Positions 20,367 to 41,590 of a stretch of DNA of 64,000 bases are shown here, in pieces; positions within the stretch are counted from its first letter, which is position 1, and every line of letters begins with the position of its first letter. The notes below the pieces were generated by a model that saw only the letters and a list, made by a program, of their open reading frames with translations, did no database searches and was not told where the DNA came from. Made by a program: the position numbers and the translations under genes. Source of the stretch: Jiangella mangrovi (GTDB lineage: Bacteria > Actinomycetota > Actinomycetes > Jiangellales > Jiangellaceae); the NCBI RefSeq assembly GCF_014204975.1, contig NZ_JACHMM010000001.1, positions 6,324,037-6,388,036 of the forward strand. Reading direction: 5' to 3'.

Positions 20367-20378
20367 CCGTATCGGCTA
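20364..20378. terminator. Small bidirectional hairpin covering two stop codons
   Basis: TAGCCG-TAT-CGGCTA is a perfect 6-bp stem with a 3-base loop. The TAG of the LacI gene is in the left arm and the TAG of the convergent nuclease gene is in the right arm. There is no T-run, so termination is plausible but not certain. Confidence 0.45.
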
Positions 20379-21965: not shown

Positions 21966-22195
21966 CTACACCAGACTTGCCGTGAATGAACGCCGTCGCG
22001 CCATGCTGCCCCTCGCCCCACATTGACCGTACGTATCGCCCAACTTGGTCATGGATTGTCGACCAGGGAGTGATCATCTGTCGAGATCCTTGAACGACTA
22101 GATTGCGATGCACCCCAACGTTCACTGGCATCCTCGAGCTGACACCTCGGACGGCCGCACCCACCTGCCTTGCCGATCTCCTGACGCGGTCCGGA
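21966..22195. other. Non-coding spacer upstream of nuclease gene
   Basis: Together with 22196-22371 this forms a 406-bp gap between two divergent genes. I see no convincing gene here. It has a lower GC content than the surroundings, as does the nuclease gene, and presumably holds that gene's promoter. A small dyad TGGTC...GACCA lies around 22045-22064. Confidence 0.5.
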
Positions 22196-22245
22196 GGTGG
22201 TTGAGGGATTGGTGTCGCCAGGGCGACACCAATCCCTCAACCACC
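22196..22245. repeat. 24-bp perfect inverted repeat (hairpin b)
   Basis: Arms 22196-22219 and 22222-22245 are perfectly complementary over 24 bp around the 2-base centre AG. It lies between divergently transcribed genes, so it cannot be a terminator for either. The inner arm GGATTGGTG matches hairpin a at 1505-1552. It may be a mobile palindromic repeat, a protein-binding dyad or part of a small transcript. Confidence 0.85.
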
Positions 22246-22371
22246 CGTCGACGGGTCCCTGCGCGAACTGGAGCCGACGCGCCACTGTTCCGCCGGTCAC
22301 ATCGGGTCGATAGTTGTCACGTCGGAGGCCCGTACGCCGTCGTCAGGGTAGGAACACGAGGAGGCACGCAG

Positions 22372-23787
22372 ATGCGCAGGATCCTGATCGTCGGTGGCGG
22401 CTACGCCGGCTTCTACACCGCGTGGCGGCTGGAGAAGAAGCTTCGCCGGGACGAGGCGGAGGTGACGCTCGTCGACCCGCGGCCGTACATGACGTACCAG
22501 CCGTTCCTGCCCGAGGTGACCGCCGGCTCGGTCGAGGCGCGGCACGTCGCGGTCCCGCTGCGGCGCAACCTGCGCCGCACCCGGCTGATCGCCGGCACCG
22601 TCGTCAACATCGACCACGCCCACCGCAGGGCGACGGTCCACCCGGCCGAGGGGCCGGAGCGAGAGCTCCACTACGACACCATCGTCCTGACGGCGGGCGC
22701 GGTGACCCGGACGTTCCCCATCCCGGGCGTCGCCGACGAGGCCATCGGGCTCAAGCACGTCGAGGAGGCCGTCGCCATCCGCGACCGGCTGCTGACGGCG
22801 TTCGAGCGCGCCGCCACCCTCCCGCCCGGCCCGGAGCGGCGCAAGCTGCTCACCGTCACGTTCGTCGGCGGCGGGTTCACCGGCGTCGAGGGCTTCGGCG
22901 AGCTGCTCTCGCTGGGCACCGCGCTGCTGAAGTTCTACCCGGAGCTGAGCTTCGACGACCTCGACTTCCACCTCGTCGAGGTCCGCGACCGCATCCTCCC
23001 GGAGGTCACCGACAAGCCCGGGCAGTGGGTGGTCGAGCACCTCGAGAAGCGCGGCGGGCACGTCCACCTCGGCACCAAGCTGGTGTCGGCCGCGGACGAC
23101 CACATCGTGCTCTCCGACGGCACCGAGTACGACAACCACCTGCTCGTCTGGACCGCCGGCAACCAGAGCAACCCGGTCGTCGCGCGGCACACGGACCTGC
23201 CGGTGCACCCGGACGGGCTGTTCCAGGTCCGCGCCGACCTGCGGGTCGGGACCGACGACGCCCCCGTGCCGGACGCGTGGGCGGCCGGCGACAACGCCGC
23301 CGTCCCGGACCTCGCGTCGGACGTGCCGGGCGCCTACACCGTCCCGAACGCCCAGAACGCCGTCCGGCAGGGGAAGCGGCTGGCCGCCAACCTCGTCGCC
23401 GACCTGCGCGGACGCACGGTGAAGCCGTACGTGCACCACAGCCTCGGCACCGTCGCCACGCTCGGCCTGGGCAAGGGGATCTTCCAGTACCGCCGCATCG
23501 TCATCAAGGGCCTGCTGGCCTGGCTCATGCACCGCGGCTACCACGTGCTGGCCGTCCCGACATGGGAGCGCAAGGTCCGGGTCTTCCTGGTCTGGGTCGC
23601 GGCGCTGTTCTACGGGCGCGACATCGCGTCGCTGCTCTCGGTGCAGCACCCGCGGGCCGCGTTCGTCGCCGCGACCCTCGGCGCCCGCAACCGCCGCCCG
23701 GCCGTCGAGGCCGAGACCGGCCCCGCCACCTCATCCGGAACGGACGAAGCGGTCGCCGCGGCCCCGCGGGAGGGTGGGGGTAGCTGA
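22372..23787 (+). CDS. Type II NADH dehydrogenase (NDH-2)
   Basis: This 471-residue membrane-associated flavoprotein oxidises NADH and reduces quinone without pumping protons. FAD motif VGGGYAGFYTA (residues ~7-17), E/D switch VDPRPYMTYQPFLPEV, NADH motif VGGGFTGVE (~165) and the second FAD segment AWAAGDNAAVPD are present. The C-terminal region after GKGIFQYRRIVIKG carries the hydrophobic/amphipathic membrane segment, and the last ~40 residues are low complexity. GAGGAGG lies 7 bases before the ATG, so the long upstream extension through the hairpin was rejected. The next gene is glucose-6-phosphate dehydrogenase. Confidence 0.92.
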   Translation: MRRILIVGGGYAGFYTAWRLEKKLRRDEAEVTLVDPRPYMTYQPFLPEVTAGSVEARHVAVPLRRNLRRTRLIAGTVVNIDHAHRRATVHPAEGPERELHYDTIVLTAGAVTRTFPIPGVADEAIGLKHVEEAVAIRDRLLTAFERAATLPPGPERRKLLTVTFVGGGFTGVEGFGELLSLGTALLKFYPELSFDDLDFHLVEVRDRILPEVTDKPGQWVVEHLEKRGGHVHLGTKLVSAADDHIVLSDGTEYDNHLLVWTAGNQSNPVVARHTDLPVHPDGLFQVRADLRVGTDDAPVPDAWAAGDNAAVPDLASDVPGAYTVPNAQNAVRQGKRLAANLVADLRGRTVKPYVHHSLGTVATLGLGKGIFQYRRIVIKGLLAWLMHRGYHVLAVPTWERKVRVFLVWVAALFYGRDIASLLSVQHPRAAFVAATLGARNRRPAVEAETGPATSSGTDEAVAAAPREGGGS

Positions 23788-23808
23788 CCCGCACCGGTGG
23801 AGGTGGCC

Positions 23809-25206
23809 ATGACGACGACAGGTACGAGCCCGGCCGACGTCCTCGTGGTCTTCGGGATCACCGGCGACCTCGCGCGGGTGATGACGTTCCGCTCGCTGTA
23901 CCGGCTCGAGGCCCGCGGCCTGCTGACCTGCCCGGTCGTCGGCGTCGCCGTCGACGACTGGACGGTGGACCGCCTGGTGCAGCGGGCGCGCGCGTCGATC
24001 GAGGGGTCCGGCGAGCACGTCGACCAGGCCGTCTTCGACCGGTTCGCCGCCCGGCTGTCCTACGTCAGCGGCGACTTCACCGACGCGGCCACGTACGGGC
24101 GGGTGGGTGACGCGATCAAGGGTGCGGAGTCACCGGTCTTCTACCTGGAGATCCCGCCGTTCCTGTTCGGCACCGTCGTGAAGGGGCTGTCCGACGCCGG
24201 CCTGACGGAGTCGGCTCGCGTCATCGTCGAGAAGCCGTTCGGCCACGACCTCGCCTCGGCCCACACGCTGGCCGAGGAACTGCACCAGTACGTCGACGAG
24301 TCGCAGCTGTACCGGATCGACCACTACCTCGGGAAGATGGGGATCGAGGAGATCCTCTACCTGCGCTTCGCCAACTCGATCCTCGAGCCGGTGTGGAACC
24401 GCGACCACGTGCGCTGCGTGCAGATCACCATGGCCGAGAGCTTCGGCGTCGAGGACCGCGGCCACTTCTACGACCCCGTCGGCGCGCTGCGCGACGTCGT
24501 CGTCAACCACCTCATGCAGGTGGTCGCGGCGGCCGCCATGGAGGCGCCGGCCCGCGGCGACGTGCGCACCATCAAGGAGTCGCAGGTCGCGCTGTTCCGG
24601 GCCGTCGCCGACGCCGACCCGGCCCACTACGTGCGCGGGCAGTACGACGGCTACCTGGGCATCGACGGCGTCGCGGCGGACTCGGAGACCGAGACGTACG
24701 CCGCGCTGCGCCTCGAGATCGAGAACTGGCGCTGGTCGGGCGTCCCGTTCTTCATCCGCACCGGCAAACGGCTCGCGGCGACGCAGACCGAGCTGCGGCT
24801 GGTCTTCAAGCACCCGCCGCGGCTGGGGTTCTGGCCGGCCGAGAGCCGGCCCGGGTCGGACCAGATCGTGGTGCGGCTGGACCCGTCGACCGGCATCAGG
24901 GTCGTGCTCGACGCCCGGCGGGCCGACCGCCAGGGCGCGGCGCCGATCGGCCTGGACATGGAGTTCGCGGCCGAGGGCGGCGAGGGCCCGACGCCGTACG
25001 AGGTGCTGCTGCTCGCTGCGATGCGCGGCGAGTCGACGAGGTTCGCCCGGCAGGACGGCATCGAGGAGACCTGGCGGGTCATGCAGCCGCTGCTCGAGGC
25101 CGCGCCGCCGGTGCACCGCTACCAGCCCGGCACCTGGGGTCCGGCGGCCGCCGACGCGCTGACGGCCGGCGAGGGCGGCTGGCAGGATCCGTGGGTGTCG
25201 TCGTGA
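23809..25206 (+). CDS. zwf: Glucose-6-phosphate 1-dehydrogenase
   Basis: This 465-residue enzyme oxidises glucose 6-phosphate with NAD(P)+ at the entry of the pentose phosphate pathway. Seen are VFGITGDLAR (nucleotide loop), VIVEKPFGHD, and the active-site peptide RIDHYLGK with the catalytic His region. The length is normal to slightly short. ATG 23809 follows GGTGGAGG, which suits better than the GTG at 23797. It is not next to the usual tal/tkt/pgl genes but sits between NDH-2 and an exporter, so it is probably an accessory paralogue. Confidence 0.93.
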   Translation: MTTTGTSPADVLVVFGITGDLARVMTFRSLYRLEARGLLTCPVVGVAVDDWTVDRLVQRARASIEGSGEHVDQAVFDRFAARLSYVSGDFTDAATYGRVGDAIKGAESPVFYLEIPPFLFGTVVKGLSDAGLTESARVIVEKPFGHDLASAHTLAEELHQYVDESQLYRIDHYLGKMGIEEILYLRFANSILEPVWNRDHVRCVQITMAESFGVEDRGHFYDPVGALRDVVVNHLMQVVAAAAMEAPARGDVRTIKESQVALFRAVADADPAHYVRGQYDGYLGIDGVAADSETETYAALRLEIENWRWSGVPFFIRTGKRLAATQTELRLVFKHPPRLGFWPAESRPGSDQIVVRLDPSTGIRVVLDARRADRQGAAPIGLDMEFAAEGGEGPTPYEVLLLAAMRGESTRFARQDGIEETWRVMQPLLEAAPPVHRYQPGTWGPAAADALTAGEGGWQDPWVSS

Positions 25207-25233: not shown

Positions 25234-26841
25234 ATGGGCGCGCCGGCGCGCACGCCCCGCACGCCGGCGCGGCCAGGGCTGGTCCTCGGCGCGCTGATCC
25301 TGGTCGCGGCGGTGGCGAACCTCAACCTCGCGGTCGCCAACGTCGCGCTGCCCGACATCGGGCGGGCGTTCGGCTCGTCGCAGACCACGCTGGACCTCAT
25401 CGCCGTCGGCTACTCGCTCGGGCTGGCGGCGTCGGTGCTGTACCTCGGCGGGCTGGGCGACCGCTACGGCCGCAAGCTCATGCTGATCCTGGGCGTGACG
25501 CTGTCGATACCGGCCTGCCTGCTGGCCGCGTACGCGCCGTCGGACGAGGTGCTGATCCTCGCGCGGGTGCTGGGCGGGCTGTCCGCCGGCATGGCCTACC
25601 CGACGACGCTGGCACTGATCACGGCGCTGTGGGCCGGTCCTGCGCGGACCAAGGCGATCGCGCTGTGGTCCGGCATCGGCGGCGCCATCGCCTCGCTCGG
25701 GCCGCTGCTGTCGGGCTGGCTGCTGGAGCACTTCTGGTGGGGCTCGGTGTTCCTGGTGACGCTGCCGCTGGCGGTGGTCGCGCTCGTGCTCGCGTGGCTG
25801 TTCGTGCCGAGCCACGTCAACGAGACCACCGACCCCGTCGACAACCTCGGCGGGCTGCTGTCGATCGTGCTCGTGGCATCGCTGGTACTGGCGATCAACT
25901 TCGCGCCGGTGCCGGGCAAGGGCGCGCTGGCCATCGGGCTGGCGGTGATCGCTCTGGCCGCGGGCGCGGCGTTCCTCCTGCGCCAGCGCCGGGCGCCGAA
26001 CCCGCTCTACGACCTGACGGTGGCCGGCCGGCGCATCTTCTGGGTCGCCGCCGTCGCCGGGATCATCGTGTTCGGCACACTGATGGGTGCCATGTTCGTC
26101 GGGCAGCAGTTCCTGCAGAACGTGCTCGGCTACTCCACCTTCGAGGCGGGCCTGTCGATCCTGCCTGCCGCCATCCTGATGGTGCTGGTGGCGCCGCGGT
26201 CGGCCTCGCTGGTCGAGTCGCACGGGTCGCGGGTCGTCCTGCTGCTCGGCTACGCCTGCTGCCTGCTCGGCTTCGTCGCGATGCTGCTGCTGTGGGACCA
26301 GGACGCGTCGTACTGGGTGATCGGTCTCGCCTACGCGCTGGTCGGGGCGGGCGTCGGGTTCGCCGGCACGCCCGCGTCGCACGCGCTGACCGGGTCGGTG
26401 CCCGTGCACCGGGCCGGCATGGCGTCGGGAACCGCCGACCTGCAGCGCGACCTCGGCGGCGCGATCATGCAGTCGATCCTCGGGGCGCTGCTCACCGCCG
26501 GCTACGCGTCCGCCGTCTCGGCCGCGATCGCCGCCGCGCCCAACAAGCAGGACATCACCGACGGCGTGCAGACGGAGCTGATGAACTCCTTCGCGTCGGC
26601 CGAGGCGACCGCCCAGCAGTACCCCCAGTACGCCGACGCCATCACCTCTGCCGCCGCCCAGTCCTTCCTCGACGGCGCCGACTGGGCCTACATCGCCGGG
26701 ATCGTCGCCATCCTCATCGGGTCCGCGCTGGTCAGCCTGCTGTTCCCGGTCAAGGAGGACGAGTCCCGCCTCCTCGCCGAGTACCACGCCGCCGACGCCC
26801 GCACCCTCCCCGAGGCGGTCCCCCCACCCGACGACCCCTGA
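25234..26841 (+). CDS. MFS drug/solute exporter, DHA2 (14-helix) type
   Basis: This 535-residue membrane protein has about 14 hydrophobic segments. NVALPDIGRAFG in helix 1, the motif-A loop GGLGDRYGRKLML, and ARVLGGLSAGMAYPTTLALI are typical of EmrB/QacA-type proton antiporters. An acidic, proline-rich tail ends the protein. The substrate is unknown. It is followed by a strong hairpin before the convergent GMC gene. Confidence 0.9.
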   Translation: MGAPARTPRTPARPGLVLGALILVAAVANLNLAVANVALPDIGRAFGSSQTTLDLIAVGYSLGLAASVLYLGGLGDRYGRKLMLILGVTLSIPACLLAAYAPSDEVLILARVLGGLSAGMAYPTTLALITALWAGPARTKAIALWSGIGGAIASLGPLLSGWLLEHFWWGSVFLVTLPLAVVALVLAWLFVPSHVNETTDPVDNLGGLLSIVLVASLVLAINFAPVPGKGALAIGLAVIALAAGAAFLLRQRRAPNPLYDLTVAGRRIFWVAAVAGIIVFGTLMGAMFVGQQFLQNVLGYSTFEAGLSILPAAILMVLVAPRSASLVESHGSRVVLLLGYACCLLGFVAMLLLWDQDASYWVIGLAYALVGAGVGFAGTPASHALTGSVPVHRAGMASGTADLQRDLGGAIMQSILGALLTAGYASAVSAAIAAAPNKQDITDGVQTELMNSFASAEATAQQYPQYADAITSAAAQSFLDGADWAYIAGIVAILIGSALVSLLFPVKEDESRLLAEYHAADARTLPEAVPPPDDP

Positions 26842-26859
26842 GGCGACCCCTCCCCAGAA

Positions 26860-26930
26860 GTTGATCTTGGAGTAACCGCGGAGTCACCGCCCGATTCGCC
26901 CGATTGATCCCGCGTTACTCCGAGATCAAC
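26860..26930. terminator. Long hairpin between convergent genes
   Basis: Arms 26860-26880 and 26911-26930 pair over about 20 bp with one mismatch and one bulge; the loop is 30 bases. It lies between the ends of the exporter gene and the convergent GMC gene, so it probably terminates both. No T-run follows either side. Confidence 0.65.
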
Positions 26931-26950
26931 TCGGGCCTGGCGAACCGCGC

Positions 26951-28504
26951 CTAGTTCAGGCGGTCGAGGAGGTGGTCGCCCACCCGCAGCGCGTTGGCCA
27001 TGACCGTCAGCGCCGGGTTGACCGCGCCGATGCTCGGGAAGAAGCTCGTGTCGACCACGTACAGGTTGTCCAGCTCGTGCGCCTTGCAGTTCCGGTCGAG
27101 CACCGACGTGGCCGGGTCGCTCCCGAACCGGGCCGTTCCGGCCTGGTGGGCGCAGCCGGCGACGGGGACGTCGTTCTTCATGTAGACGTCGCGCGGGATC
27201 AGGTGGTGCGGGTGCATCCCGAGGTGCCCCAGGTGGCCCTTGACCCGCTTGTACAGCTGCTCGAGCGGCTCGCGGTTGTTCGGCGTGTAGTGGAGCACGA
27301 CGTCGCCGGTGGGGCTCAGCGTCACCCGGTTGTCCGGGTCGGGCAGGTCCTCGACGGAGAGCCAGAAGTCGACGGCGTGCTCGGCGACCTCGTCGAGGGC
27401 GAACATCGGCGCCAGGTTCGCCAGCACGGGCTTCTCGCCGCGGTACATGGGCGCCGACGACTTGCCGACCATCTGCACGTTGCCCATCGGGTACTCGAAG
27501 TCGTCGTCGCCGAAGTAGTAGTCGTTGAGGCCCAGCGTCTTCTGGAACCGGGTGTCGTTCTTCTCCGTCGACACCGCCAGGAACGCGCGGCTGTTGTGGA
27601 ACAGGTAGTTCCGCCCGACCTGGTCCGACCCGTTGGCCAGCCCACCCGGATGCCGCTCACCAGCGCTCGCCAGCAGCAGTTTCGCCGTGTTCGCCGCCCC
27701 CGCCGCCACGACGACCACCGACCCCGTGAACCGCTGCTCGACCCCGCCGACCGCAGCGACCACCGTAGTCACCGTCCGCCCGGCCGGGTCCGTCTCGAGC
27801 CGGCGCACCTCAGCGTTGCGCACGAGCGTCACGTTCGGGTGCCGCAGCGCGGGCCGGACGGCGACGACGTCGGCGTCGGACTTCGCGTGCACCAGGCAGG
27901 GGAAGCCGTCGCAGGTGGCGCACCGGATGCAGGCGCTGAGCTCCGGCCGGGCCTCGTCCAGCATGATCCCGCTCGGCGCGTGGAACGGGTGCAGCCCCGT
28001 GTCGGCGAGGTCGTCGAAGAGCCGCTGGATGCGCGGCTCGTGCGACACCGGCGGGTAGGGATAGGGCGACGGCGACGGCGGCTCGGTCGGGTCCTCGCCG
28101 CGGGCGCCGTGCACCTGGTACAGCTGCTCGGCCTGCGTGTAGTACGGCTCCAGCTCGTCGTAGCCGATGGGCCAGGCCGGCGAGACGCCGCCGTGGTGGC
28201 GCAGCTCGGTGAAGTCGCGCTCGCGCAGCCGGTACAGGGCGGCGCCGTAGAACTTGGTCGCACCGCCCACGTAGTAGTGGATCTGCGGCTGGAACGGCTT
28301 GCCGTCGCCGTCGTACCAGGTGTCGGCCGACACGTACCGGTTGTCGACGAAGACCGCCGCCGCGTCCCAGTTCTCGATCTCGCGCGGCAGCCAGTCGCCG
28401 CGCTCGAGGATGAGAACGCGCTTGCCCGACGGTGCCAGCCGGTGCGCCAGCGTGCCCCCGCCGGCCCCGGATCCCACGATGATGACGTCGTACTCGTCGG
28501 CCAT
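26951..28504 (-). CDS. GMC-family FAD oxidoreductase
   Basis: This 517-residue GMC (glucose-methanol-choline) oxidoreductase oxidises an alcohol, sugar or sterol. The FAD motif VGSGAGGGTLAHRLA is at residues ~10-24, E in LILERG binds ribose, GGATKFYGAALYRLRERDF lines the FAD, and the active-site histidine region is GCAHQAGTARFG with NPALTVMANALR. A cysteine-rich segment CIRCATCDGFPC is typical of the bacterial cellobiose/gluconate dehydrogenase-like branch. No signal peptide is seen. It is the last gene of the minus-strand chain starting with the LuxR regulator, behind NDH-2. Confidence 0.9.
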   Translation of the reverse strand: MADEYDVIIVGSGAGGGTLAHRLAPSGKRVLILERGDWLPREIENWDAAAVFVDNRYVSADTWYDGDGKPFQPQIHYYVGGATKFYGAALYRLRERDFTELRHHGGVSPAWPIGYDELEPYYTQAEQLYQVHGARGEDPTEPPSPSPYPYPPVSHEPRIQRLFDDLADTGLHPFHAPSGIMLDEARPELSACIRCATCDGFPCLVHAKSDADVVAVRPALRHPNVTLVRNAEVRRLETDPAGRTVTTVVAAVGGVEQRFTGSVVVVAAGAANTAKLLLASAGERHPGGLANGSDQVGRNYLFHNSRAFLAVSTEKNDTRFQKTLGLNDYYFGDDDFEYPMGNVQMVGKSSAPMYRGEKPVLANLAPMFALDEVAEHAVDFWLSVEDLPDPDNRVTLSPTGDVVLHYTPNNREPLEQLYKRVKGHLGHLGMHPHHLIPRDVYMKNDVPVAGCAHQAGTARFGSDPATSVLDRNCKAHELDNLYVVDTSFFPSIGAVNPALTVMANALRVGDHLLDRLN

Positions 28505-28523
28505 GACGGCCCCCTCAGCGATT

Positions 28524-29809
28524 TCAGTCCAGCGAGATGTGCGGCCGGTCGGCCTCGTCGTCGCCCCAGGCGATGCGCTGCGGCGCGGACGAGGCCTCGA
28601 TGGTGGCGGTGCGGTCGCGGTCGAAGTAGTCCCAGGCCCACGTCACGAACGCGTCGGTCTTGCTGTGCACGCCGCTCATCAGCATCATGTGCACCCCGAG
28701 CCAGGCGGCGAACGCGACCGGTCCCTCGACCTGGTGGTGGCGCTTGCCGACCTCGGCGACGGCGGCGTTGCGGCCGATCATCGCCATGATGCCCTTGTCC
28801 TTGTAGCGGAACGGCCGGGCCGGCTCGCCCTTCAGGTCGCGCAGGATGTTCTCGGCGGCCCACTTCCCCGACTGCTGCGCGACGGAGCCCAGCTGCGGCC
28901 ACGTCCCGCCGCCCGAGCCCGACGGGATGTTCGCCGCATCGCCGACGGCGTAAGCCCCCGGGTAGCCGTCGACGCCGAGGTCCGCCCGCACGTCCAGCCG
29001 TCCGCCCCGTCCGGGAGACGGCCCGGCCGACCGCGCGACGGACGAGGCCAGCTCGCCGCCGCCCCACACCACCGTCCGGGCCGGGATGCCGCCGCCGTCG
29101 TCCAGCTCGACCCGGTCCGGGCGCACGGCCGCGACGCCGGTGCCCAGCCGCACCTCGGCGCCGGCCTCGGTGAGCTTGCGGGCGGCGTACTCGTGCGCCT
29201 TCGGCGAGAACTCGCCGAGCAGGGCGTCGCCGCGGTCGACGAGGGTGATCCGCCCCGGCCGCACGACGCGGCCGGTCTCGTCCCAGACGCCCATCAACTC
29301 GGCCAGCGCGCCGGCGGTCTCGACGCCGGTCGGCCCGCCGCCCACGACGACCACGTCGAGCGCACCCGGCTCGTCCGGCGACCGCAGCAGGTCCTGCAGG
29401 TGCAGCCGCAGCCGCTCCGCGTCGGCGACGGAGTACAGCGGGAACGCGTGCTCGGCGGCGCCCGGGATGCCGAAGAAGTTCGGCCGGGCGCCGGCCGCGA
29501 CCACGACGTGCGACCCGCTGAGCGTGCGCCCGTCGGCCAGGACGAGGCCGCGCTCGGCCAGCCGCGCCTCGGCCACGTCGGCCGTCACGACCTCGACCGC
29601 GTCGTGCTCCCTGAAGATGGCCCGGTGCGGCCGGGCGACGTCCACGGCGGGCAGCTGCGAGCTGGCCACCTGGTACAGCAGCGGCTGGAACTGGTGGTAG
29701 TCGTTGCGGTCCACCAGCGTCACGGCGACGTCCTCCTCGGCGAGCCGGCGCGCGCAGGCGACGCCGGCCAGCCCGCCGCCCAGCACCAGCACGCGGTCGG
29801 CGGTCCCGG

Positions 29810-29813
<4 letters not shown>
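28524..29813 (-). CDS. Type II NADH dehydrogenase (NDH-2), second copy
   Basis: This 429-residue NDH-2 has FAD loop VLGGGLAGVACARRLA, VDRNDYHQFQPLLYQVA, NAD motif VVVGGGPTGVETAGALAEL, and AYAVGDAANI. The C-terminus (FAAWLGVHMMLMSGVHSKTDAF) holds the membrane-anchoring part. The GTG start overlaps the GH15 stop (GTGA). Being in one transcript with cytochrome bd oxidase, it can feed electrons from NADH through quinone to bd without complex I or III. Confidence 0.93.
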
Positions 29814-31674
<1,861 letters not shown>

Positions 31675-31678
<4 letters not shown>

Positions 31679-32679
31679 GAGCCCTCCTCGGGTAGAAGTC
31701 CGCGCTGGTCCAGGACGTAGAGGACGATGAAGCCGGGCACCACGACGAGTACGGCGAGCCCGACGACGACCAGGACCGTGGTCAGGGTGGCGTCCGGCGC
31801 GGCGGCCGCGGACACCTTCAGGCTCTCGGGCAGCAGGTACGGCCACTGCGCCACGCCCCAGGCGGCGACGATGCTCGCGACGGCGCCGACGGCGAGCAGC
31901 CGCCCGCCGCGCGCGGCGTCGCGGACCAGCAGCACGAGGGCGCCGACTCCGGCCGCGACGCTGACGAGGACCACCGGCAGTGCCCGCGACGTCAGCTCGC
32001 CGTACACGTACTCCGCGTCGGCGCGCAGCACGAACAGGCCGATGATCCCGATGACGGCGACGGCGACGGCGGCGGCCACCGCGCGGCGGCGGAAGTAGGC
32101 CGCCATCTCGGGGTCGCCCAGCCGCCGGGCGTCCCACACCAGGTAGGCGGCGGCCAGGTAGGCGACGGCCGCGACCGCCAGCACGCCGCCGAGGATCGAG
32201 GTCGGGTTGATCCAGCTGTCCACCGGGTCGCCGGCCCGCCCGCCCGCCGGCACCCGGCCCGACGCGATGCCACCCGCGATCGCGCCCAGGGCGAACGGGA
32301 CCAGCACCGACGACAGCGCGAACGCCCCGCCGAACACCCGCCGGTGCTCCAGGCGGACGACGGCCTTGCGGAACGCGAACCCGGCCCCGCGCAGGACGAT
32401 GCCGAGCGCGGCGATGGCCAGCGGCACGAACAGCGTCAGCGTCACCGACGCGTAGGCCTCGGGGAACGACGTCCACAGCACGACGAACACGAAGATCAGC
32501 CAGACGTGGTTGGCCTCCCACACGGGGCCGACGGAGTGCTCGATGACGGCGCGCGGCCGGGCGCCCCGCTCCGGCCCGCCCGCGACGAGGTCCCAGAACC
32601 CCGCCCCGAAGTCGGCGCCGGCGAAGATCGCGTACGCGATGATCCCGGCCAGCAGCACGATGGCGACCGTCGTGCTCAC
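31675..32679 (-). CDS. cydB: Cytochrome bd ubiquinol oxidase subunit II
   Basis: This 334-residue membrane protein has about nine hydrophobic segments. GADFGAGFWDL in helix 1 and VIEHSVGPVWEANHVWLIF are CydB signatures. It pairs with CydA to form the high-affinity terminal oxidase. The GTG start overlaps the cydA stop. No cydCD genes for assembly are in the window. Confidence 0.95.
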
Positions 32680-34127
32680 GGGACCGTCTCCTCCTCGGAC
32701 TCGGCCTCCCGCCCGGCCCCGGCCCCGGCTCCGCGTTCGGCGGGTGCGCGCGGGCCGTACGGGGCGTCGCCCTCGCGCTGCCCCTCGCCCTGCCGCCACC
32801 GCCGGCTCATCCCGCGCAGGACGAGCACCAGCGTGGTCCCGAGCGCGGCGTAGAGGACGACGACCGAGACGAACATGATCCAGACGCCGGTGTTGCCGGT
32901 GGCGGCGTCCTCGACCTTCATGTGGCCGTACACGATCCAGGGCTGCCGGCCGACCTCGGTGACGACCCAGCCGGCCTCCATGGCGATGACGGCGAGCACG
33001 CCCGACGCGGCGGCGCAGCGCAGGAACCACCTGCTCTGCGGCATGTGCCGGCGGAACGCCCAGACGACGCCGTACCAGACCGAGAGCAGGAACAGCAGCG
33101 TCCCGAGCCCGACCATGACGTCCCAGGCCAGGTGGACGATGTTGACCTGCCGCGTCGTGGGCCGCTCGTCCGCCGGGAACGCGTCGAGGCCCTGCACGAC
33201 GGTGTCCCTGCCGGTGCTCGGGTCGGACAGCCACGAGGCCAGCCCGGGGATCGGGAAGCCGCCGCTGACGGTGCCGTCGTCGTTCAGCCGGCCGAGCAGC
33301 GTCTCGGGGACGTCGCTGCCGGTCTCCGGCACCAGCTCGATCGCGGCGAACTTCGCCGGCTGGTTGTCGTACACCCAGCGGGCCAGGGCGTCGCCGACCC
33401 CCAGCTGGATCGGGGTCATGACGGCGGCGACGGAGAACGCGATGACGAAGCCGAGCCGGTGGTAGTGGTCGCGGCGCCCGCGAAGCATCCCCGTCGCATA
33501 GACGGAGGCGACCAGGAACCCGCCCACCAGGTACGCGGCGATGATCATGTGCGCGGTCTGCAGCGGCATCGAGTCGTTGAAGATCACCTGCACCGGGTCG
33601 ACGTCGACGACGTTCCCGTCGGAGTCCAGGGTGAAGCCGCCGGGCGCGTTCATCCAGGCGTTCGCGGCGACGACGGAGGCGCTGCCGAAGATGCCGGCCA
33701 GCACGATCGGGACGCCGGTCCAGAAGTGCGTCCAGGGCCGCAGCCGGCGCCAGCCGAAGATGTAGATCGAGATGAAGATCGCCTCGGTGAAGAAGAAGAT
33801 CCCCTCGAACATGAACGGGATGCCGAAGACGTCGCCCCACTGACCCATGAACCTGGGCCAGAGCAGGCCGAACTCGAAGCTCAGGACGGTGCCGGTGACG
33901 GCGCCGACAGCGAACGTCACGGCCATGTACTTCGACCAGCGCTGGGCCAGCAGCAGCGCGTCGCGGTCGTCGTGCTTGAGGGCGCGATAGTTCGCGATGA
34001 GGGTGAAGAACGCCCATGACACCCCGAGCGGCACCAGGATGATGTGGAAGCCGAGCGTGAACGCCATCTGCCCGCGTGCCCACGGGACGGGGTCGACGGC
34101 GGCCAGCGCCGCGGCGAGGGAGCCCAT
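32676..34127 (-). CDS. cydA: Cytochrome bd ubiquinol oxidase subunit I
   Basis: This 483-residue membrane protein carries the heme ligands. It has the N-terminal GFHIILVPLG histidine, SMPLQTAHMIIAAYLVGG with the b558 histidine, PIQLGVGDALARW and the GWVVTEVGRQPWIVYG block near the third heme ligand. The quinol loop is of the short type. The enzyme reduces O2 to water at low oxygen or under stress. The ATG is one base after the stop of the LuxR gene, with only weak SD, so translation is likely coupled to the regulator. A low-complexity acidic tail ends the protein. Confidence 0.95.
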   Translation of the reverse strand: MGSLAAALAAVDPVPWARGQMAFTLGFHIILVPLGVSWAFFTLIANYRALKHDDRDALLLAQRWSKYMAVTFAVGAVTGTVLSFEFGLLWPRFMGQWGDVFGIPFMFEGIFFFTEAIFISIYIFGWRRLRPWTHFWTGVPIVLAGIFGSASVVAANAWMNAPGGFTLDSDGNVVDVDPVQVIFNDSMPLQTAHMIIAAYLVGGFLVASVYATGMLRGRRDHYHRLGFVIAFSVAAVMTPIQLGVGDALARWVYDNQPAKFAAIELVPETGSDVPETLLGRLNDDGTVSGGFPIPGLASWLSDPSTGRDTVVQGLDAFPADERPTTRQVNIVHLAWDVMVGLGTLLFLLSVWYGVVWAFRRHMPQSRWFLRCAAASGVLAVIAMEAGWVVTEVGRQPWIVYGHMKVEDAATGNTGVWIMFVSVVVLYAALGTTLVLVLRGMSRRWRQGEGQREGDAPYGPRAPAERGAGAGAGREAESEEETVP

Positions 34128-34128
34128 C

Positions 34129-36882
34129 TCAGACGAGGCCCAGCTGACGGGCCCGGCGGACCGCCTCGTTGCGGCGCGACGCGGACAGCTTGCGCAGGAT
34201 GCCGCGGATGTGGGTCCGGACGGTGTTGACGGAGATGTACATCGCCGACGCGACCTCCTCCGTCGTGAGCAGCGACGACAGGTGCCGCAGCACCTCGAGC
34301 TCGCGGTCCGAGAGCGCCCGCCCGGGCGGCACGCCACCGTCGGGGTCCTCGTCCTCCGCGCGGGTGGTGTGCGCCGGCCCGGCGCCGCCGGGACGCAGCC
34401 AGTCGGCCCGGGCGGCCACGTCCGCGTCGAGGCGCATCAGCCGGCGCACCCGCGGCGAGACGTGCGTGAACGGGCGCCGCAGTCCGTCGCGCTCGGCCAG
34501 GCGCAGGGCGCGCACGACGGCGGCCCGGCTCGCCTCGGCCTCGCCGCGGGCGAGCTGGCGATGCGCCTGCTGGAGCAGCTGCTCGACCCGCGCGGCCTGC
34601 GGCTCGATCCCGGCGGGACGGGGTGCGGCCGGGGTGTCGCGGGTGGCGTCCCGGGTGGGGTCCCTGCGGGCGTCGACGGCGGCCGCCTCGGCGTCGATCA
34701 GGGCCCGGACCCAGGCCGGGCCGGTCCCAGACCGCTCCAGCAGCCGCCGGGCGCCGTCGGCGTCGCCCTGGTCGCGGCGGAGCCGGACCTGGAGCAGCAC
34801 CCCGACCGACGCCAGCAGCGGGTCGTCGCGGCTCTCCTGGATCCGGACGGCCCGGCGCAGCCAGTGCTGGGCGCCGGCCAGGTCCTGGCGCTGCAACGCC
34901 GTCCACGCCCGCGCCAGGTGCGCCGCGGCGGGCCGGTCGGCGGCCGCGACGGACGACTCGCCGGCCAGCGCCTCGGCCGCGCCGGCCAGCTCCCGCACCC
35001 GCGACAGCCGGCCCCGGCTCGCCTCCGCGAGGGCGAGCATCCCGAGGCAGCGCAGCCGGATCGCCGCGGCGCAGCCGTCGACGCCGTCGTCCCCGCCGCC
35101 GCCCGGGCCGGCCGCCCTGCCGTCGACCCCGTCGACCCCGTTCCCACCCGCGCCGTCGCCGCCCGCGCTCGCGCGGCGCCCGGCGCTACCGTCCGTGCCC
35201 GGCTGCTCGTCGCCGGCGGCGGCGAGGGCCGCCATGGCCTCGGCCAGGTCGGTGCAGGCGGCCACCGGGTCGCCGTCGCGCAGCCGGGCGGTGCCGGCCG
35301 CGAGCAGCCCCAGCGCCCGCAGCTCCCCGAGCCGGGCCGGGTCCACCCAGGTGGCGCCGCGCACGACCTCGAGCAGGTGCCCGGCGGCCGCGAGCGTCGC
35401 GCCGGCGTCGCCGACCCCGTCGGCCAGCATCGTCCGGGTGGCCGCGACCGCCAGCGCCAGGCCGGAGCCGGACGCGCCTCGGCCGAGCGACGCCAGCCGC
35501 TCGTCACACCGCGACAGCCGGCGTGCGGCCCGCCGCGGCTCGCCCCGTCCGACCGCGAGTGCCGCCAGCACCGCCGCGGCGGCCGGCGTGTCCACGTCGG
35601 CGGGCAGCCGCTCCAGCCGCCCCACCAGGGCCGATCCCGGGCCGGGCACCAGCAGCGGCGCCAGCGCGCCGCCGTCGACCACCAGGGTGGCCGCGCCGGC
35701 CCAGTCGCCCGCGGCCACCAGCTGGTCCACCGCCTCGGTGAGCCGGCCCGACGCGGCGAACCAGCGCGCCGCCCGGCGGTGCAGCGTGACCGCCTCGCCC
35801 GGGCTCTCCCGCGCCAGCACCGTGCCCAGCAGGTCGCGCACGAGCGGGTGGGTCCGGTAGGCGCCGGCGGCGTCGGGCACCGCCAGGACGAACGCGTTGC
35901 CGCGGACCAGCTCGGCCAGCAGCCGCTCGCTGTCGCGGCGCCCGCTGAGGGCCTCGGCCAGGCCGGGCGTCAGCTCCGCCACGACGCTGGTGCGGGTCAG
36001 GAAGTCCAGGTGGGCGGGCGGCAGCGCGTCGAGCACCTCCGCGGCCAGGTACTCCCCCAGCACCGACCCGTCCGGCTCCAGGCTGGCGCGGACCTCGTCG
36101 GCCGCGGCGGCGGTGCGGTGGTCCTGCAGCGCCATGGCGGCGAACCGGACGCCCGCGGCCCAGCCCTCGGTGCGCTCGGCGACCATCCTGGTCAGCTCGG
36201 GGGTGCGGACGCCGTGCAGCTCCAGCAGCACGGCGACCTCGGCGGGGGTGAAGGCGAGGTCGTCGTAGCGGACCTGCGCCACCGTCGCGTCCAGCCGGTA
36301 CCGGTGCAGCGGCAGCGCGGGATCGGTCCGCGTGACCATGACCAGCCGGAACCGCGGCCCGGCGGCGCGCAGCAGCTGGTCGAGCTGGCGGCCGATGCGC
36401 CGGTCGGTCAGCCGTTCGGCCTGGTCGAGGACGAGGGCGACGGGGGCGTCGTGCGTGAGCAGCTCGGCCGCGAGCCGGTCGACGAACGCCGGGTCCAGGT
36501 CGCGGCCCGGGTCCGGGGCGCCGTCGACCACCGCGCCGGTCCGGGAGAGTGCGGCGATCACGTGCGACCAGAACACGCCGGGCCGGTCGTCGCCGTCGTC
36601 GAGCGTGAGCCACGCGGGCGGGCCGGCCAGCCGCGCCGGCGGCACACCCCGGCGCGCCCGGGTGGCCCAGGCCGCGGCGAGCACCGTCTTCCCGGATCCC
36701 GCCGGTGCCCGGATCAGCGTGAGCGGAGCGCTCTGCACCCCTGCCGCGACGGCGTCGACCAGCCGGTGCCGGTCGACGACCGGGAAGGCGGGCCGGGGCG
36801 GGCGCAGCCGGGCGGGCAGCGCCGGCGGCCGTGCGCCGCTCACGCGCTCACCCATGATCGTTCTGGCAGCGTGCCCCGTCAC
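34129..36882 (-). CDS. Large LuxR/MalT-type ATP-dependent transcriptional activator
   Basis: In this 917-residue STAND-type regulator, Walker A APAGSGKT is at ~59-66, Walker B VALVLDQAE is near 150, then come winged-helix and TPR-like repeats with low-complexity Gly/Asp stretches near residue 590. The C-terminal LuxR domain spans about the last 62 residues (LSDRELEVLRHLSS, TTEEVASAMYISVNTVRTHI). The GTG at 36882 has GGTGAGG upstream; ATG 36855 is an alternative. It sits one base before cydA on the same transcript and may control the respiratory operon. Confidence 0.9.
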   Translation of the reverse strand: MTGHAARTIMGERVSGARPPALPARLRPPRPAFPVVDRHRLVDAVAAGVQSAPLTLIRAPAGSGKTVLAAAWATRARRGVPPARLAGPPAWLTLDDGDDRPGVFWSHVIAALSRTGAVVDGAPDPGRDLDPAFVDRLAAELLTHDAPVALVLDQAERLTDRRIGRQLDQLLRAAGPRFRLVMVTRTDPALPLHRYRLDATVAQVRYDDLAFTPAEVAVLLELHGVRTPELTRMVAERTEGWAAGVRFAAMALQDHRTAAAADEVRASLEPDGSVLGEYLAAEVLDALPPAHLDFLTRTSVVAELTPGLAEALSGRRDSERLLAELVRGNAFVLAVPDAAGAYRTHPLVRDLLGTVLARESPGEAVTLHRRAARWFAASGRLTEAVDQLVAAGDWAGAATLVVDGGALAPLLVPGPGSALVGRLERLPADVDTPAAAAVLAALAVGRGEPRRAARRLSRCDERLASLGRGASGSGLALAVAATRTMLADGVGDAGATLAAAGHLLEVVRGATWVDPARLGELRALGLLAAGTARLRDGDPVAACTDLAEAMAALAAAGDEQPGTDGSAGRRASAGGDGAGGNGVDGVDGRAAGPGGGGDDGVDGCAAAIRLRCLGMLALAEASRGRLSRVRELAGAAEALAGESSVAAADRPAAAHLARAWTALQRQDLAGAQHWLRRAVRIQESRDDPLLASVGVLLQVRLRRDQGDADGARRLLERSGTGPAWVRALIDAEAAAVDARRDPTRDATRDTPAAPRPAGIEPQAARVEQLLQQAHRQLARGEAEASRAAVVRALRLAERDGLRRPFTHVSPRVRRLMRLDADVAARADWLRPGGAGPAHTTRAEDEDPDGGVPPGRALSDRELEVLRHLSSLLTTEEVASAMYISVNTVRTHIRGILRKLSASRRNEAVRRARQLGLV

Positions 36883-36911
36883 GATGCCTCACCCCCGTGT
36901 TCCACATCCCT

Positions 36912-36929
36912 TCACGGCTACGGCCGTGA
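36912..36929. promoter_or_regulatory. 7-bp dyad in the LuxR leader
   Basis: TCACGGC-TACG-GCCGTGA forms a perfect 7-bp stem with a 4-base loop, 30 bases before the GTG start of the LuxR gene. It could be an operator or a leader stem. Confidence 0.4.
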
Positions 36930-36940
36930 GCCATCACCCG

Positions 36941-36961
36941 AAAAAGGTGAGAGCACTCTCA
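36941..36961 (-). terminator. Intrinsic terminator after the membrane-protein pair
   Basis: On the minus strand a TGAGAG-TG-CTCTCA stem (extended by GG/CC with one bulge) is followed by CC and five T. It overlaps the stop codon of the 36959-37756 gene and precedes the LuxR gene. It would separate the two small membrane-protein genes from the respiratory operon. Confidence 0.5.
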
Positions 36962-37756
36962 TCCGCGCTGAAAGAAGCCGGTATCCAGGTCGCGCACGAC
37001 GGCGTCGACGGCATCGCCGCCGACCGTGATCGGGCCGCGCCACGGCGCGCTGAGCGCGAACAGCAGCGCCAGGCTGAGGCCGACCACGCCGGCCAGACCG
37101 ACCACCAGCAGCGAGATCCGCGCGCCGCCCCGGACCGCCAGCGCGCTCGCGTTGACGATCAGCGCGACCCCGCTGGCCACCAGCGTGACGACGTAGAGCG
37201 CCGGGATCTCGTGGTCCGCGGCGACGATGCGGGCCCGGCGAGTGCTGGTGACGGCGTCCACGGCCGTGAGCAGCTCGGTCGAGGCCGGCGTGCCGATCTG
37301 CTGCCAGCGGCCCGCCTGCGTCCGGACGGCCTGCTCCATGGCCGCGATGGCGCGCTCGGTGTCGGCGTCGTCGCCGGTGGCGGCGGCCGGGCCGCTCCAC
37401 TCCCGCTCGCGCGTGGTGATCAGGTAGTCGCGCAGGGCCGCGTGGATCGGCTCGGAGTCCACGCCGGGGTTGGTCGCCGCCCAGGCCAGCCGCGCCGCCG
37501 CGGCGCCCTCGTCGCTGACGTAGCCCTCCGCGGCGCGCAGGTAGCCGGCCTCGCTGGACAGCGTCAGCGCGCTGAGGATGGCGAACGCCGCCCCCAGGGC
37601 CGGCATCAGCGGCGCGGCGATGCGCTGGACGCGGTCCCGCTCGGCCTCGGGGACCAGCGCCCGCACGGCCGCCGTCGACGCGACGACCACCAGCAGCGCC
37701 AGCACGAGGCAGCCCCCGACGAGCACGCCGGCCGGGAGCGAGCTGAGCCAGGTCAT
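36959..37756 (-). CDS. Membrane protein, DUF4239/bestrophin-like
   Basis: This 265-residue protein has two N-terminal hydrophobic segments, a soluble helical middle (residues ~75-170), and two or three C-terminal helices. The topology and segments like RRARIVAADHEIPALYVVTLVASGVALI resemble the DUF4239 group, a bestrophin-like membrane family of unknown role. It is translated from an ATGA overlap with a similar neighbour. I do not know its function. Confidence 0.6.
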   Translation of the reverse strand: MTWLSSLPAGVLVGGCLVLALLVVVASTAAVRALVPEAERDRVQRIAAPLMPALGAAFAILSALTLSSEAGYLRAAEGYVSDEGAAAARLAWAATNPGVDSEPIHAALRDYLITTREREWSGPAAATGDDADTERAIAAMEQAVRTQAGRWQQIGTPASTELLTAVDAVTSTRRARIVAADHEIPALYVVTLVASGVALIVNASALAVRGGARISLLVVGLAGVVGLSLALLFALSAPWRGPITVGGDAVDAVVRDLDTGFFQRG

Positions 37757-38589
37757 CGGCCGGCCTCCAGGGCGATGCCCCGGTCGTCACAGGGCGGCGG
37801 GTCGTCCGTGCCGACCAGCTCGAGCTCCTGGTCGATGACCTGCAGCACCCGCTCCATCGCCACCGGCTGCAGCCCGCCGACGCCGGGATGGAACGGGTCG
37901 TTGAGCGCCTGGACCAGGAGCAGCAGCGCCGTGATGACCGAGACGACGGTGCCCATGAGCAGCGCCTGCACCTGGATCGCCTCGCCGCTGTCGGCGAAGA
38001 ACAGCATGTAGAAGAAGATCAGCACCGAGGCGAAGAGCAGCACGATCCACATCGGCGCCGGGATCACGCCGACGGCGCCGTGGATGCGGTCGTTGCGCGC
38101 CGCCTCGCGGTCCGACGTCTGGCTCAGCCAGGTGTCGAAGGCCGACTCCTGGACCGATGTCGTCGGCTCCACCGTGCGGATCGTCCGGAACAGCTCCGCA
38201 CCCCACGGGTTGAGCTCCTCGCCGAGGGTGCCCGCGTACATCCGCTCCCACTGCACCCCGGCGACCGACCGCGCGTAGCAGACCAGCTCCCCCGTCAGCT
38301 CCGCCGCCTGGGGGGCCGGCAGCAGCTGCGCGGTCTCGACCTGCTGGGCGACGATCAGCGCCTCGTCCTCCGCGCCCACGCGGGCAGCGTCGTAGCTGGT
38401 GAAGGCCAGGAAGACGACGAAGCCGAGCAGGACGGCGAACCCCGTCGCGAGCACGCCGAACACCCCGGCCGCGCGGTCGCCGTCGTGGAAGTAGCCGCCG
38501 TCCGGTGCACCGCGCCGGACCAGCAGCATGACGCCGACCGCCACCGCCGTCACCGCGATGACGACCACCGCGGCGACGACGATGTTCAT
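37753..38589 (-). CDS. Membrane protein, DUF4239/bestrophin-like, paralogue
   Basis: This 278-residue protein has the same layout as its downstream neighbour. Two N-terminal helices (GVFGVLATGFAVLLGFVVFLAF) and a soluble helical part with DTWLSQTSDREAARNDRIHG are followed by MWIVLLFASVLIFFYMLFF and another helix. The pair probably arose by duplication and may form a hetero-oligomeric channel or pore (inference). Confidence 0.65.
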   Translation of the reverse strand: MNIVVAAVVVIAVTAVAVGVMLLVRRGAPDGGYFHDGDRAAGVFGVLATGFAVLLGFVVFLAFTSYDAARVGAEDEALIVAQQVETAQLLPAPQAAELTGELVCYARSVAGVQWERMYAGTLGEELNPWGAELFRTIRTVEPTTSVQESAFDTWLSQTSDREAARNDRIHGAVGVIPAPMWIVLLFASVLIFFYMLFFADSGEAIQVQALLMGTVVSVITALLLLVQALNDPFHPGVGGLQPVAMERVLQVIDQELELVGTDDPPPCDDRGIALEAGR

Positions 38590-38602
38590 CGGCGCCGGCC
38601 GG

Positions 38603-39037
38603 TCAGCTGCCGGCGGTGATGTCCCGGCCGTGGACCGTCAGCGCCCAGACGACGCTCACGGCCACCGCGATGATCACGACTGCCCAGATCGGGTAGTACG
38701 GCAGCCACGCGAACGCCGCCAGCATGCTGAGTCCCGCGAGGATCACGCCCACGGTGCGGGCCGCGACCGACCCCGTGAACAGCGCGGCCCCCGCGATCAC
38801 CAGCACGATGCCCAGGATGAGGTGGATCCAGCCCCAGGTGTCCGCGTCGAAGTCGAAGACGTACTCCCTGACCTGCGTGAAGAAGTCGTCGTCGAAGATC
38901 GCGACCAGTCCGGCGATCGCGTGGAACACGCCGATCATGACCATCATGACGGCGGCGAAGACGATCCAGCCCACGGCCCACGCACTCGGCTCGCGGTAGT
39001 CGTCCTCCGTGTCTCTCGGAATGTGGAGATCGGTCAT
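38603..39037 (-). CDS. Small four-helix membrane protein (DUF7144-like)
   Basis: This 144-residue protein has four hydrophobic helices: SAWAVGWIVFAAVMMVMIGV, TWGWIHLILGIVLVIAGAAL, TVGVILAGLSMLAAFAWLPY, and WAVVIIAVAVSVVWAL. The pattern fits a common actinobacterial family of unknown function. AGGTGCGAG precedes the ATG. It is the first gene of the unit with the two DUF4239-like genes. Confidence 0.7.
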   Translation of the reverse strand: MTDLHIPRDTEDDYREPSAWAVGWIVFAAVMMVMIGVFHAIAGLVAIFDDDFFTQVREYVFDFDADTWGWIHLILGIVLVIAGAALFTGSVAARTVGVILAGLSMLAAFAWLPYYPIWAVVIIAVAVSVVWALTVHGRDITAGS

Positions 39038-39175
39038 CTCGCACCTGCCTCGACGGCGGTCTACTGCCGGCACGCGGTTCGCGCCGGCTAGGTGCGACGC
39101 TCTCCCGACCGGGGGTGCGGTCGCATCACCCCCCGAGGGTGATTGCTTGCTCACCCCTGGGACGCTCGGCCCAGG

Positions 39176-41248: not shown

Positions 41249-41590
41249 ATGAAGTACGTGCTGTTGTTCGTCGACACCGAGCAGTTCCACGCCGACCTTC
41301 AGGCTATGACGCCCGACGACCGCGCCCGCGCGTTCGGGCTGGTCGACGCGTGGGTGGCCGAGCACCGCGGCGTCATCCGCGGCGGCAACAAGCTCCAGGA
41401 CGCCCACACCGCGACCACCGTCCGCCTCGACGGGCCGGAGCCGGTCGTCACCGACGGACCGTTCGTCGAGGGCAAGGAGGTCGTGAGCGGCTACTTCGAG
41501 ATCGAGGTCGCCGATCTCGACGAGGCGCTGCGCATGGCGAAGAGCTGGCCGGGCTGCCCGGTGATCGAGATCCGGCCGCTGGAGTCATGA
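41249..41590 (+). CDS. YCII-related DGPF-domain protein
   Basis: This 113-residue protein has the YCII-like fold. The motif VTDGPFVEGKEVVSGYFEIE includes the DGPF signature. Such proteins are consistently encoded beside ECF42-type sigma factors and probably work with them. It overlaps the sigma factor start (ATGA). Confidence 0.9.
   Translation: MKYVLLFVDTEQFHADLQAMTPDDRARAFGLVDAWVAEHRGVIRGGNKLQDAHTATTVRLDGPEPVVTDGPFVEGKEVVSGYFEIEVADLDEALRMAKSWPGCPVIEIRPLES

What the first reader, a model, noticed from the sequence alone, without database searches (positions are those of the whole stretch)
26951..36882. Compact respiratory transcript: LuxR/MalT regulator, cydA, cydB, GH15, NDH-2, GMC oxidoreductase
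The first five genes, from the LuxR regulator to NDH-2, overlap by a few bases or are one base apart, and GMC follows NDH-2 after 19 bp. NDH-2 plus cytochrome bd makes a minimal non-pumping NADH-to-oxygen chain. A GH15 (likely trehalase) inside this chain, and glucose-6-phosphate dehydrogenase with a second NDH-2 across the divide, suggest that stored sugar is burned to feed this chain under stress or low oxygen. The ATP-binding LuxR protein upstream may sense the energy or sugar state.
Basis: partly seen in the sequence, partly recalled or inferred. Interest (0 to 1): 0.5.

Follow-up and report, generated by a model that had tools for sequence, protein, structure and literature searches.

The report
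Shuffled glucose-to-oxygen respiratory gene module
A Jiangella operon that joins a sugar-cutting enzyme, sugar-oxidising enzymes and an oxygen-consuming oxidase proves to be one version of a widely shared gene set, reordered and with parts exchanged in other bacteria, which probably burns glucose straight to oxygen.

Summary
In detail: on the minus strand of a Jiangella genome, luxR-cydA-cydB-GH15-ndh2-gmc overlap by 4 bp or lie 1-19 bp apart. In 48 loci with close cydA relatives, GH15, GMC, NDH-2 and G6PDH recur near cydAB in 31, 24, 27 and 30, in many orders and orientations; in 21 hand-picked loci of ordinary-type cydA none recurs. Among 31 GMC-bearing cyd loci, G6PDH stands in 23 and a glucose-1-dehydrogenase-like SDR in 7, never both. 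Some relatives add mutarotase, gluconolactonase or gluconokinase. The oxidase itself is exchanged: ordinary-type cyd in two actinomycetes, heme-copper oxidases on some proteobacterial and cyanobacterial plasmids. Most of these G6PDHs lack the arginine that binds NADP phosphate, so NADH for NDH-2 is predicted. GMC is nearest to glucose and fructose dehydrogenases. Best reading: an accessory chain that frees glucose from an alpha-glucoside, oxidises it by a flavin and a nicotinamide dehydrogenase, and passes electrons by quinol to its own oxidase. Trehalase identity is not supported; stress role and sensing by the regulator are untested. My literature searches listed no description. All function is inferred from sequence.

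The parts
34129..36882 (-). LuxR-type regulator with an ATPase-like N-terminal part (P-loop APAGSGKT at residue 59) and C-terminal GerE DNA-binding domain
   Evidence: similar gene models in 11 of the 47 contig loci, E 1e-15
32676..34127 (-). cydA, cytochrome bd quinol oxidase subunit I
   Evidence: best PDB match 9r2g, cytochrome bd menaquinol oxidase subunit I
31675..32679 (-). cydB, cytochrome bd subunit II
29810..31678 (-). GH15 alpha-glucoside hydrolase, no signal peptide seen by eye; E418, E582 and E583 invariant in 29 of 29 aligned
28524..29813 (-). NDH-2-type NADH:quinone oxidoreductase
26951..28504 (-). GMC flavoprotein, nearest to FAD glucose dehydrogenase and fructose dehydrogenase large subunit; C192, C195, C203 in the loop that holds the [3Fe-4S] cluster in the former
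23797..25206 (+). G6PDH that lacks the NADP 2'-phosphate arginine; convergent, member of the same neighbourhood set
22108..23787 (+). second NDH-2-like flavoprotein (start may be 22372); seen beside the module only in Jiangella
25234..26841 (+). MFS (DHA2-type) transporter; its cluster occurs in 6 of the 47 contig loci and the window

Best explanation
The operon with the neighbouring G6PDH gene is the Jiangella version of an accessory sugar-respiration module. GH15 (no signal peptide seen, so probably cytoplasmic) releases beta-glucose from an alpha-glucoside. The glucose is oxidised at C1 by two routes: directly by the GMC flavoprotein, whose electrons go to menaquinone (inferred), and, after phosphorylation, by an NAD-preferring G6PDH whose NADH is oxidised by NDH-2. 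Both routes reduce the quinone pool, and the cytochrome bd of the module reduces oxygen to water. Shown by sequence: gene content, conserved and reshuffled linkage, use of either G6PDH or an SDR glucose-dehydrogenase-like gene, exchange of the oxidase, conserved candidate catalytic residues. Inferred: substrates, cofactor preference, electron flow from GMC to quinone, purpose (oxygen removal or redox relief with low energy yield).
For: Linkage: of 48 close-cydA loci, GH15 31, GMC 24, NDH-2 27, G6PDH 30 within 10 kb, all four in 18; 0 of 21 ordinary-cydA loci for each. Twelve ordered same-strand neighbour pairs among six components, 11 of the 12 median gaps under 50 bp. Reverse test: 9 of 10 GMC copies of at least 59% identity in 148 genomes of the class lie within 10 kb of a cydA, two of these of the ordinary type. 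G6PDH only 23, SDR only 7, neither 1, both 0 of 31 GMC-bearing cyd loci. SDRs: 4 of 4 tested pass the cut-off of a glucose 1-dehydrogenase subfamily, and the best PDB matches of one are glucose 1-dehydrogenases. Mutarotase in 8 of 48; gluconokinase in a Streptomyces canus plasmid locus and four unnamed loci that group with it; gluconolactonase on 7 of 20 plasmid loci. Oxidase exchange: bd 3, heme-copper 4, both 2 of 20 plasmid GMC loci. G6PDH: V/A/G/S in 26 of 29 at the position of the canonical arginine. GMC: C192 49, C195 52, C203 49 of 53.
Against: 10 of 48 close-cydA loci have none of the six partner families, seven of these at least 17 kb long. Of 37 loci with cydA at 44-57% identity, only 5 have GMC and 5 GH15. 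A Jiangella relative (L094) keeps GH15 and NDH-2, but cydA is only fragments and cydB and GMC were not detected; 7 of 9 genomes of the genus show no intact copy of this cydA. In the phylum sample 1 of 6 further GMC copies has cydA nearby, although 4 of the other 5 lie on contigs under 14 kb. 11 of 20 plasmid GMC loci show no oxidase in the stretch read. GMC cysteine spacing differs from the Burkholderia enzyme; Roseomonas, Aureimonas and Mesorhizobium INR15 relatives lack two of the three cysteines and an Arthrobacter plasmid relative (46%) all three. Three of 29 G6PDHs keep K or R. The AlphaFold model of GMC was poor, mean pLDDT 63. No expression or enzyme data.
Confidence: 0.6

Rival explanations
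1. A stress or hypoxia operon in which cytochrome bd and NDH-2 are the point and GH15 mobilises trehalose or glycogen; GMC is a bystander.
For: bd oxidase expression is linked to microaerobic conditions in Streptomyces coelicolor and M. tuberculosis (passages of PMC6302529); GH15 includes trehalases and glucoamylases (passages of PMC12446779).
Against: GMC has oxidases of unrelated kinds as neighbours and sits with gluconolactonase or SDR also where no oxidase is seen. Trehalase model scores lie below the cut-offs. No regulatory data for or against.
Confidence: 0.2
2. A sugar-acid pathway (alpha-glucoside to gluconate to 6-phosphogluconate) in which the oxidase only disposes of electrons; the aim is carbon use, not oxygen removal.
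For: Gluconokinase, gluconolactonase and mutarotase neighbours in some loci.
Against: None of the 47 contig loci with close cydA matched the gluconolactonase or gluconokinase query at E 1e-8; a dedicated oxidase is not needed for mere carbon use.
Confidence: 0.15
3. Plain co-inheritance on a mobile island of genes with unrelated functions.
For: Patchy presence within the genus (2 of 9 genomes carry the cydA, a third has fragments); plasmid copies, some near transposases.
Against: The same partner families recur in many orders, with non-homologous replacement of the oxidase and of the NAD(P)-linked dehydrogenase.
Confidence: 0.05

Closest known systems
Sugar-oxidising respiratory chain of acetic acid bacteria (membrane sugar dehydrogenases, quinone, terminal quinol oxidase; recalled, not tested)
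   Same: Sugar dehydrogenases feed quinol to a terminal oxidase with low energy yield
   Different: Here genes for hydrolase, flavin and nicotinamide dehydrogenases and oxidase lie together, and GMC and GH15 show no export signal by eye
Burkholderia cepacia FAD glucose dehydrogenase and fructose dehydrogenase (GMC family with [3Fe-4S] cluster)
   Same: Closest solved relatives over the whole length; three cysteines in the corresponding loop
   Different: Cysteine spacing C-x2-C-x7-C instead of C-x5-C-x3-C; no hitchhiker or cytochrome c subunit among the operon genes
Kribbella flavida isomaltose glucohydrolase and GH15 trehalases
   Same: GH15 catalytic domain; W417-E418 aligns with the WE of the isomaltose enzyme
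   Different: Additional N-terminal part; specificity unknown
NDH-2 plus cytochrome bd respiration
   Same: Both enzymes present with family-level matches
   Different: Encoded together with sugar hydrolysis and dehydrogenation genes

Membership tests
Cytochrome bd quinol oxidase | CydA and CydB families, adjacent | tested here: met
   Pfam 413 and 214 bits; best PDB match 9r2g over residues 16-461
Cytochrome bd quinol oxidase | heme ligands and activity | not tested
   ligand positions were not mapped onto a structure; no assay
NDH-2 | nearer to NADH:quinone oxidoreductases than to sulfide:quinone reductases | tested here: met
   the best seven PDB sequences (6e-47 to 1e-33) carry NADH dehydrogenase-type names, or for three the general name of a pyridine nucleotide-disulfide oxidoreductase that I recall as NDH-2; sulfide:quinone reductases follow from 6e-11
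GH15 trehalase | score above the curated trehalase cut-offs | tested here: not met
   367 against 820 and 319 against 1000; these are archaeal models, so a bacterial trehalase is not excluded
GH15 | general acid and general base glutamates | tested here: met
   E418, E582 and E583 invariant in 29 of 29; E418 aligned to the isomaltose enzyme; which of E582/E583 is the base was not settled
[3Fe-4S] GMC glucose or fructose dehydrogenase | whole-length homology | tested here: met
   E 4e-54 over profile positions 2-514
[3Fe-4S] GMC glucose or fructose dehydrogenase | cluster ligand cysteines at equivalent positions | tested here: inconclusive
   three near-invariant cysteines in the same loop, other spacing
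[3Fe-4S] GMC glucose or fructose dehydrogenase | hitchhiker and cytochrome c subunits | tested here: inconclusive
   none among the operon genes scanned; the rest of the genome was not searched for them
NADP-dependent G6PDH | arginine for the 2'-phosphate of NADP (recalled role) | tested here: not met
   V in the window, R in the own paralogue
MalT regulator | score above the MalT cut-off | tested here: not met
   197.7 against 537

The most novel reading that the evidence does not exclude
A mobile plug-in respiratory module spread over at least four phyla (Actinomycetota, Gemmatimonadota, Pseudomonadota, Cyanobacteriota) acts as a water-forming glucose oxidase built from parts: intracellular glucose is oxidised by a GMC dehydrogenase and by an interchangeable NAD-linked dehydrogenase, and electrons go to an own, interchangeable terminal oxidase, mainly to remove oxygen or relieve reductant rather than to make ATP.
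Probability: 0.3. Interest if true: 0.75.

Novelty: new variant of a known kind. Interest (0 to 1): 0.6.

Why it matters
It gives a testable role to a GMC subfamily for which I found no assigned function, to a bd oxidase that coexists with two other cydA-like genes in the same genome, and to a G6PDH type that may make NADH. If oxygen removal is the aim, it would be a genetically portable oxygen-scavenging circuit, found also on plasmids.

Tried and rejected
Promoter and terminator scan of 26500-39100: one promoter-like site on the other strand and one terminator-like site (1.1 expected), no use for transcript limits. AlphaFold of GMC: mean pLDDT 63, so no fold search was run. First gene caller and clustering merged overlapping frames; replaced. 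A first attempt to place the own G6PDH paralogue read a wrong frame; corrected. A first P-loop pattern that began with G only missed the motif; one search found it with A in front. MalT and trehalase membership were not accepted on scores. The second NDH-2 (22108-23787) as a module part was not accepted: its cluster holds L021, the window and two other places of the own genome, plus L094; several loci end too early to tell. Literature: ten searches. Of these, looked for the gene set; judged from titles and abstract starts, none of the listed papers describes it (one search listed 20 of 108 papers). Passages of four papers were seen, none read whole; PMC9927152 had nothing on the gene set in the passages shown. 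Only open-licence PubMed Central papers are covered.

Full report
What is there. The window lies at 6324037-6388036 of a one-contig 7.16-Mb genome. The closest named cydA relatives are two Jiangella (87% identity); the genus name rests on that. G6PDH, an MFS transporter and a second NDH-2-like gene face them tail to tail.

Own genome. It has two further cydA-like genes, at 33% and 29% identity, one with cydB and one near two ABC transporter genes that would fit cydDC, so the window oxidase is an extra one. GH15 has one paralogue at 42%, NDH-2 five weaker matches, one of them the second gene in this window, and G6PDH one paralogue at 39%.

Linkage. A scan of one-per-species genome contigs gave 47 loci with cydA at 68-87% identity; one more (L093, about 89%) came from the whole-genome sample. 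Within 10 kb of cydA in these 48, GH15 is in 31, G6PDH in 30, NDH-2 in 27, GMC in 24, mutarotase in 8 and a glucose-dehydrogenase-like SDR in 4; 18 have GH15, GMC, NDH-2 and G6PDH together; 10 have none of the six families. 39 of the 48 stretches are at least 17 kb long. In 37 loci with cydA at 44-57% identity (25 of at least 17 kb) the counts are SDR 6, GH15 5, GMC 5, NDH-2 2, mutarotase 2, G6PDH 1. In 21 loci of ordinary-type cydA (27-34%; 19 of at least 17 kb) all these are 0. The last two sets were picked by hand from the list. Fisher p for GH15, GMC, NDH-2 and G6PDH in the first against the last set are 1e-7, 2e-5, 2e-6 and 4e-7; the loci are related, so these overstate the evidence. More telling is that order and strand change: GH15-NDH2-GMC after cydAB, GMC before cydA, G6PDH-GH15 as a divergent pair, NDH2-G6PDH as a divergent pair. 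Twelve ordered same-strand neighbour pairs occur, 11 with a median gap under 50 bp. In a further phylum member G6PDH, GH15, GMC, NDH-2, cydA and cydB follow each other on one strand (L164).

Reverse test. In 148 genomes of the class, 10 GMC copies of at least 59% identity were found in 9 genomes; 9 of the 10 lie within 10 kb of a cydA. Two of these oxidases are of the ordinary type: cydAB-SDR-NDH2-GMC on one strand in one genome, cydAB divergent from GMC-G6PDH-NDH2 in another. In 396 genomes of the phylum, 6 further copies (57-72%) were seen; 1 of 6 has cydA nearby, 4 of the other 5 lie on contigs under 14 kb, and one (L168) has none in 19.9 kb.

Exchange of parts. Among 31 GMC-bearing cyd loci, 23 have a G6PDH and no SDR, 7 an SDR and no G6PDH, 1 neither and none both (Fisher p 3e-6, same caution). 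Read by eye on the GMC tree, the change falls in at least three places. Four SDRs from four loci pass the NCBIfam cut-off of a glucose 1-dehydrogenase subfamily (226-238 against 215), and the best PDB matches of the L047 SDR are glucose 1-dehydrogenases; SDR names are weak evidence of substrate. On plasmids, GMC relatives were found in 75 records, among them Pseudomonadota, Cyanobacteriota, Bacillota and Actinomycetota. together list 25 records with at least 49% identity (not every record was listed); I opened 20 of these, and one at 46%. Of the 20, three have bd, four a heme-copper oxidase and two both, and 11 have none in the stretch read (annotations). An SDR match of at least 34% identity is in 13 of 20, a gluconolactonase match in 7, with one more short piece by annotation. 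A Streptomyces canus plasmid carries GH15, gluconokinase, GMC, cydAB, an NDH-2-like gene and SDR. In the 47 contig loci no gluconokinase or gluconolactonase match was found at E 1e-8. These extra genes point to glucose, its lactone and gluconate as intermediates.

Enzyme details. The G6PDH of the window has GVAVDDW and GDLARVM where the own paralogue has GFARRDW and GDLARKK. At the arginine position, 26 of 29 readable sequences from these loci have V, A, G or S, and 3 have K or R. That this arginine binds the NADP phosphate is recalled. The PDB entry 4lgv, the closest solved G6PDH, also lacks it (GVASDD), so the subtype is probably not confined to the module. GMC is homologous over its length to Burkholderia FAD glucose dehydrogenase, whose [3Fe-4S] cluster is held by Cys212, Cys218 and Cys222 (passages of PMC6719666). 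By eye, C203 aligns with Cys222, and C192 and C195 lie in the same loop with other spacing. The three are present in 49, 52 and 49 of 53 rows, the window included. GH15 keeps candidate catalytic glutamates in 29 of 29, and GH15 hydrolases release beta-glucose (passages of PMC12446779), which fits the mutarotase neighbours.

How it works, most likely. Alpha-glucoside to beta-glucose by GH15; glucose to lactone by GMC with electrons to menaquinone; glucose 6-phosphate to its lactone with NAD, and NADH to menaquinone by NDH-2; menaquinol to oxygen by cytochrome bd. Gene content and linkage are shown; each reaction and the purpose are inferred. The LuxR-type protein has a P-loop and may control the operon; similar gene models stand in 11 of the 47 contig loci, but nothing about its signal was tested.

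Against. Ten close-cydA loci without partners, few partners in the middle tier, a Jiangella relative with cydA reduced to fragments but GH15 and NDH-2 kept, plasmid loci without a nearby oxidase, and four GMC relatives without the full set of cysteines limit the claim. No experiment supports it.

Novelty. Each enzyme belongs to a known family, and sugar dehydrogenases feeding a quinol oxidase are known from acetic acid bacteria (recalled). The conserved, reshuffled combination with exchange of oxidase and dehydrogenase was not seen in print in seven searches for the gene set, judged from listings only.

Noticed in passing
window 20376-21965 (-): Protein with Mrr-type restriction endonuclease domain next to the module; the 2-kb block 20001-22000 has the lowest GC of the window (0.647).
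   Followed up: no
window 36959-38589 (-): Two overlapping bestrophin-like genes directly upstream of the LuxR gene, also there in L021, L022, L093 and L094.
   Followed up: partly
L094 (G144:C1:3527000-3546900): A Jiangella relative keeps GH15, NDH-2 and LuxR matches, but cydA is only fragments and cydB and GMC were not detected.
   Followed up: partly
L153 5526-13169; L163 6512-14408: Two cyanobacterial plasmids carry heme-copper oxidase genes, GMC and cydAB side by side, near ferrous iron transport genes.
   Followed up: partly
L145, L146, L147, L149, L151, L158, L160: Most of a recurring set DoxX, cupin, gluconolactonase and VOC protein stands beside these proteobacterial GMC genes; DoxX could be a membrane partner of GMC.
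   Followed up: no
L041, L042, L046, L061: Four Williamsia loci keep the close cydAB relatives in another conserved neighbourhood without module genes, while a fifth (L043) has the module.
   Followed up: no
L024, L028, L030, L044, L056: DUF2252 genes recur near cydAB in five loci, but one control locus (L117) has one too; aquaporin-like genes in L028, L030, L044 and beside GMC in L143.
   Followed up: no
window 41587-42807 (+): Sigma factor with a C-terminal DUF6596 domain, near a glyoxalase-like gene.
   Followed up: no
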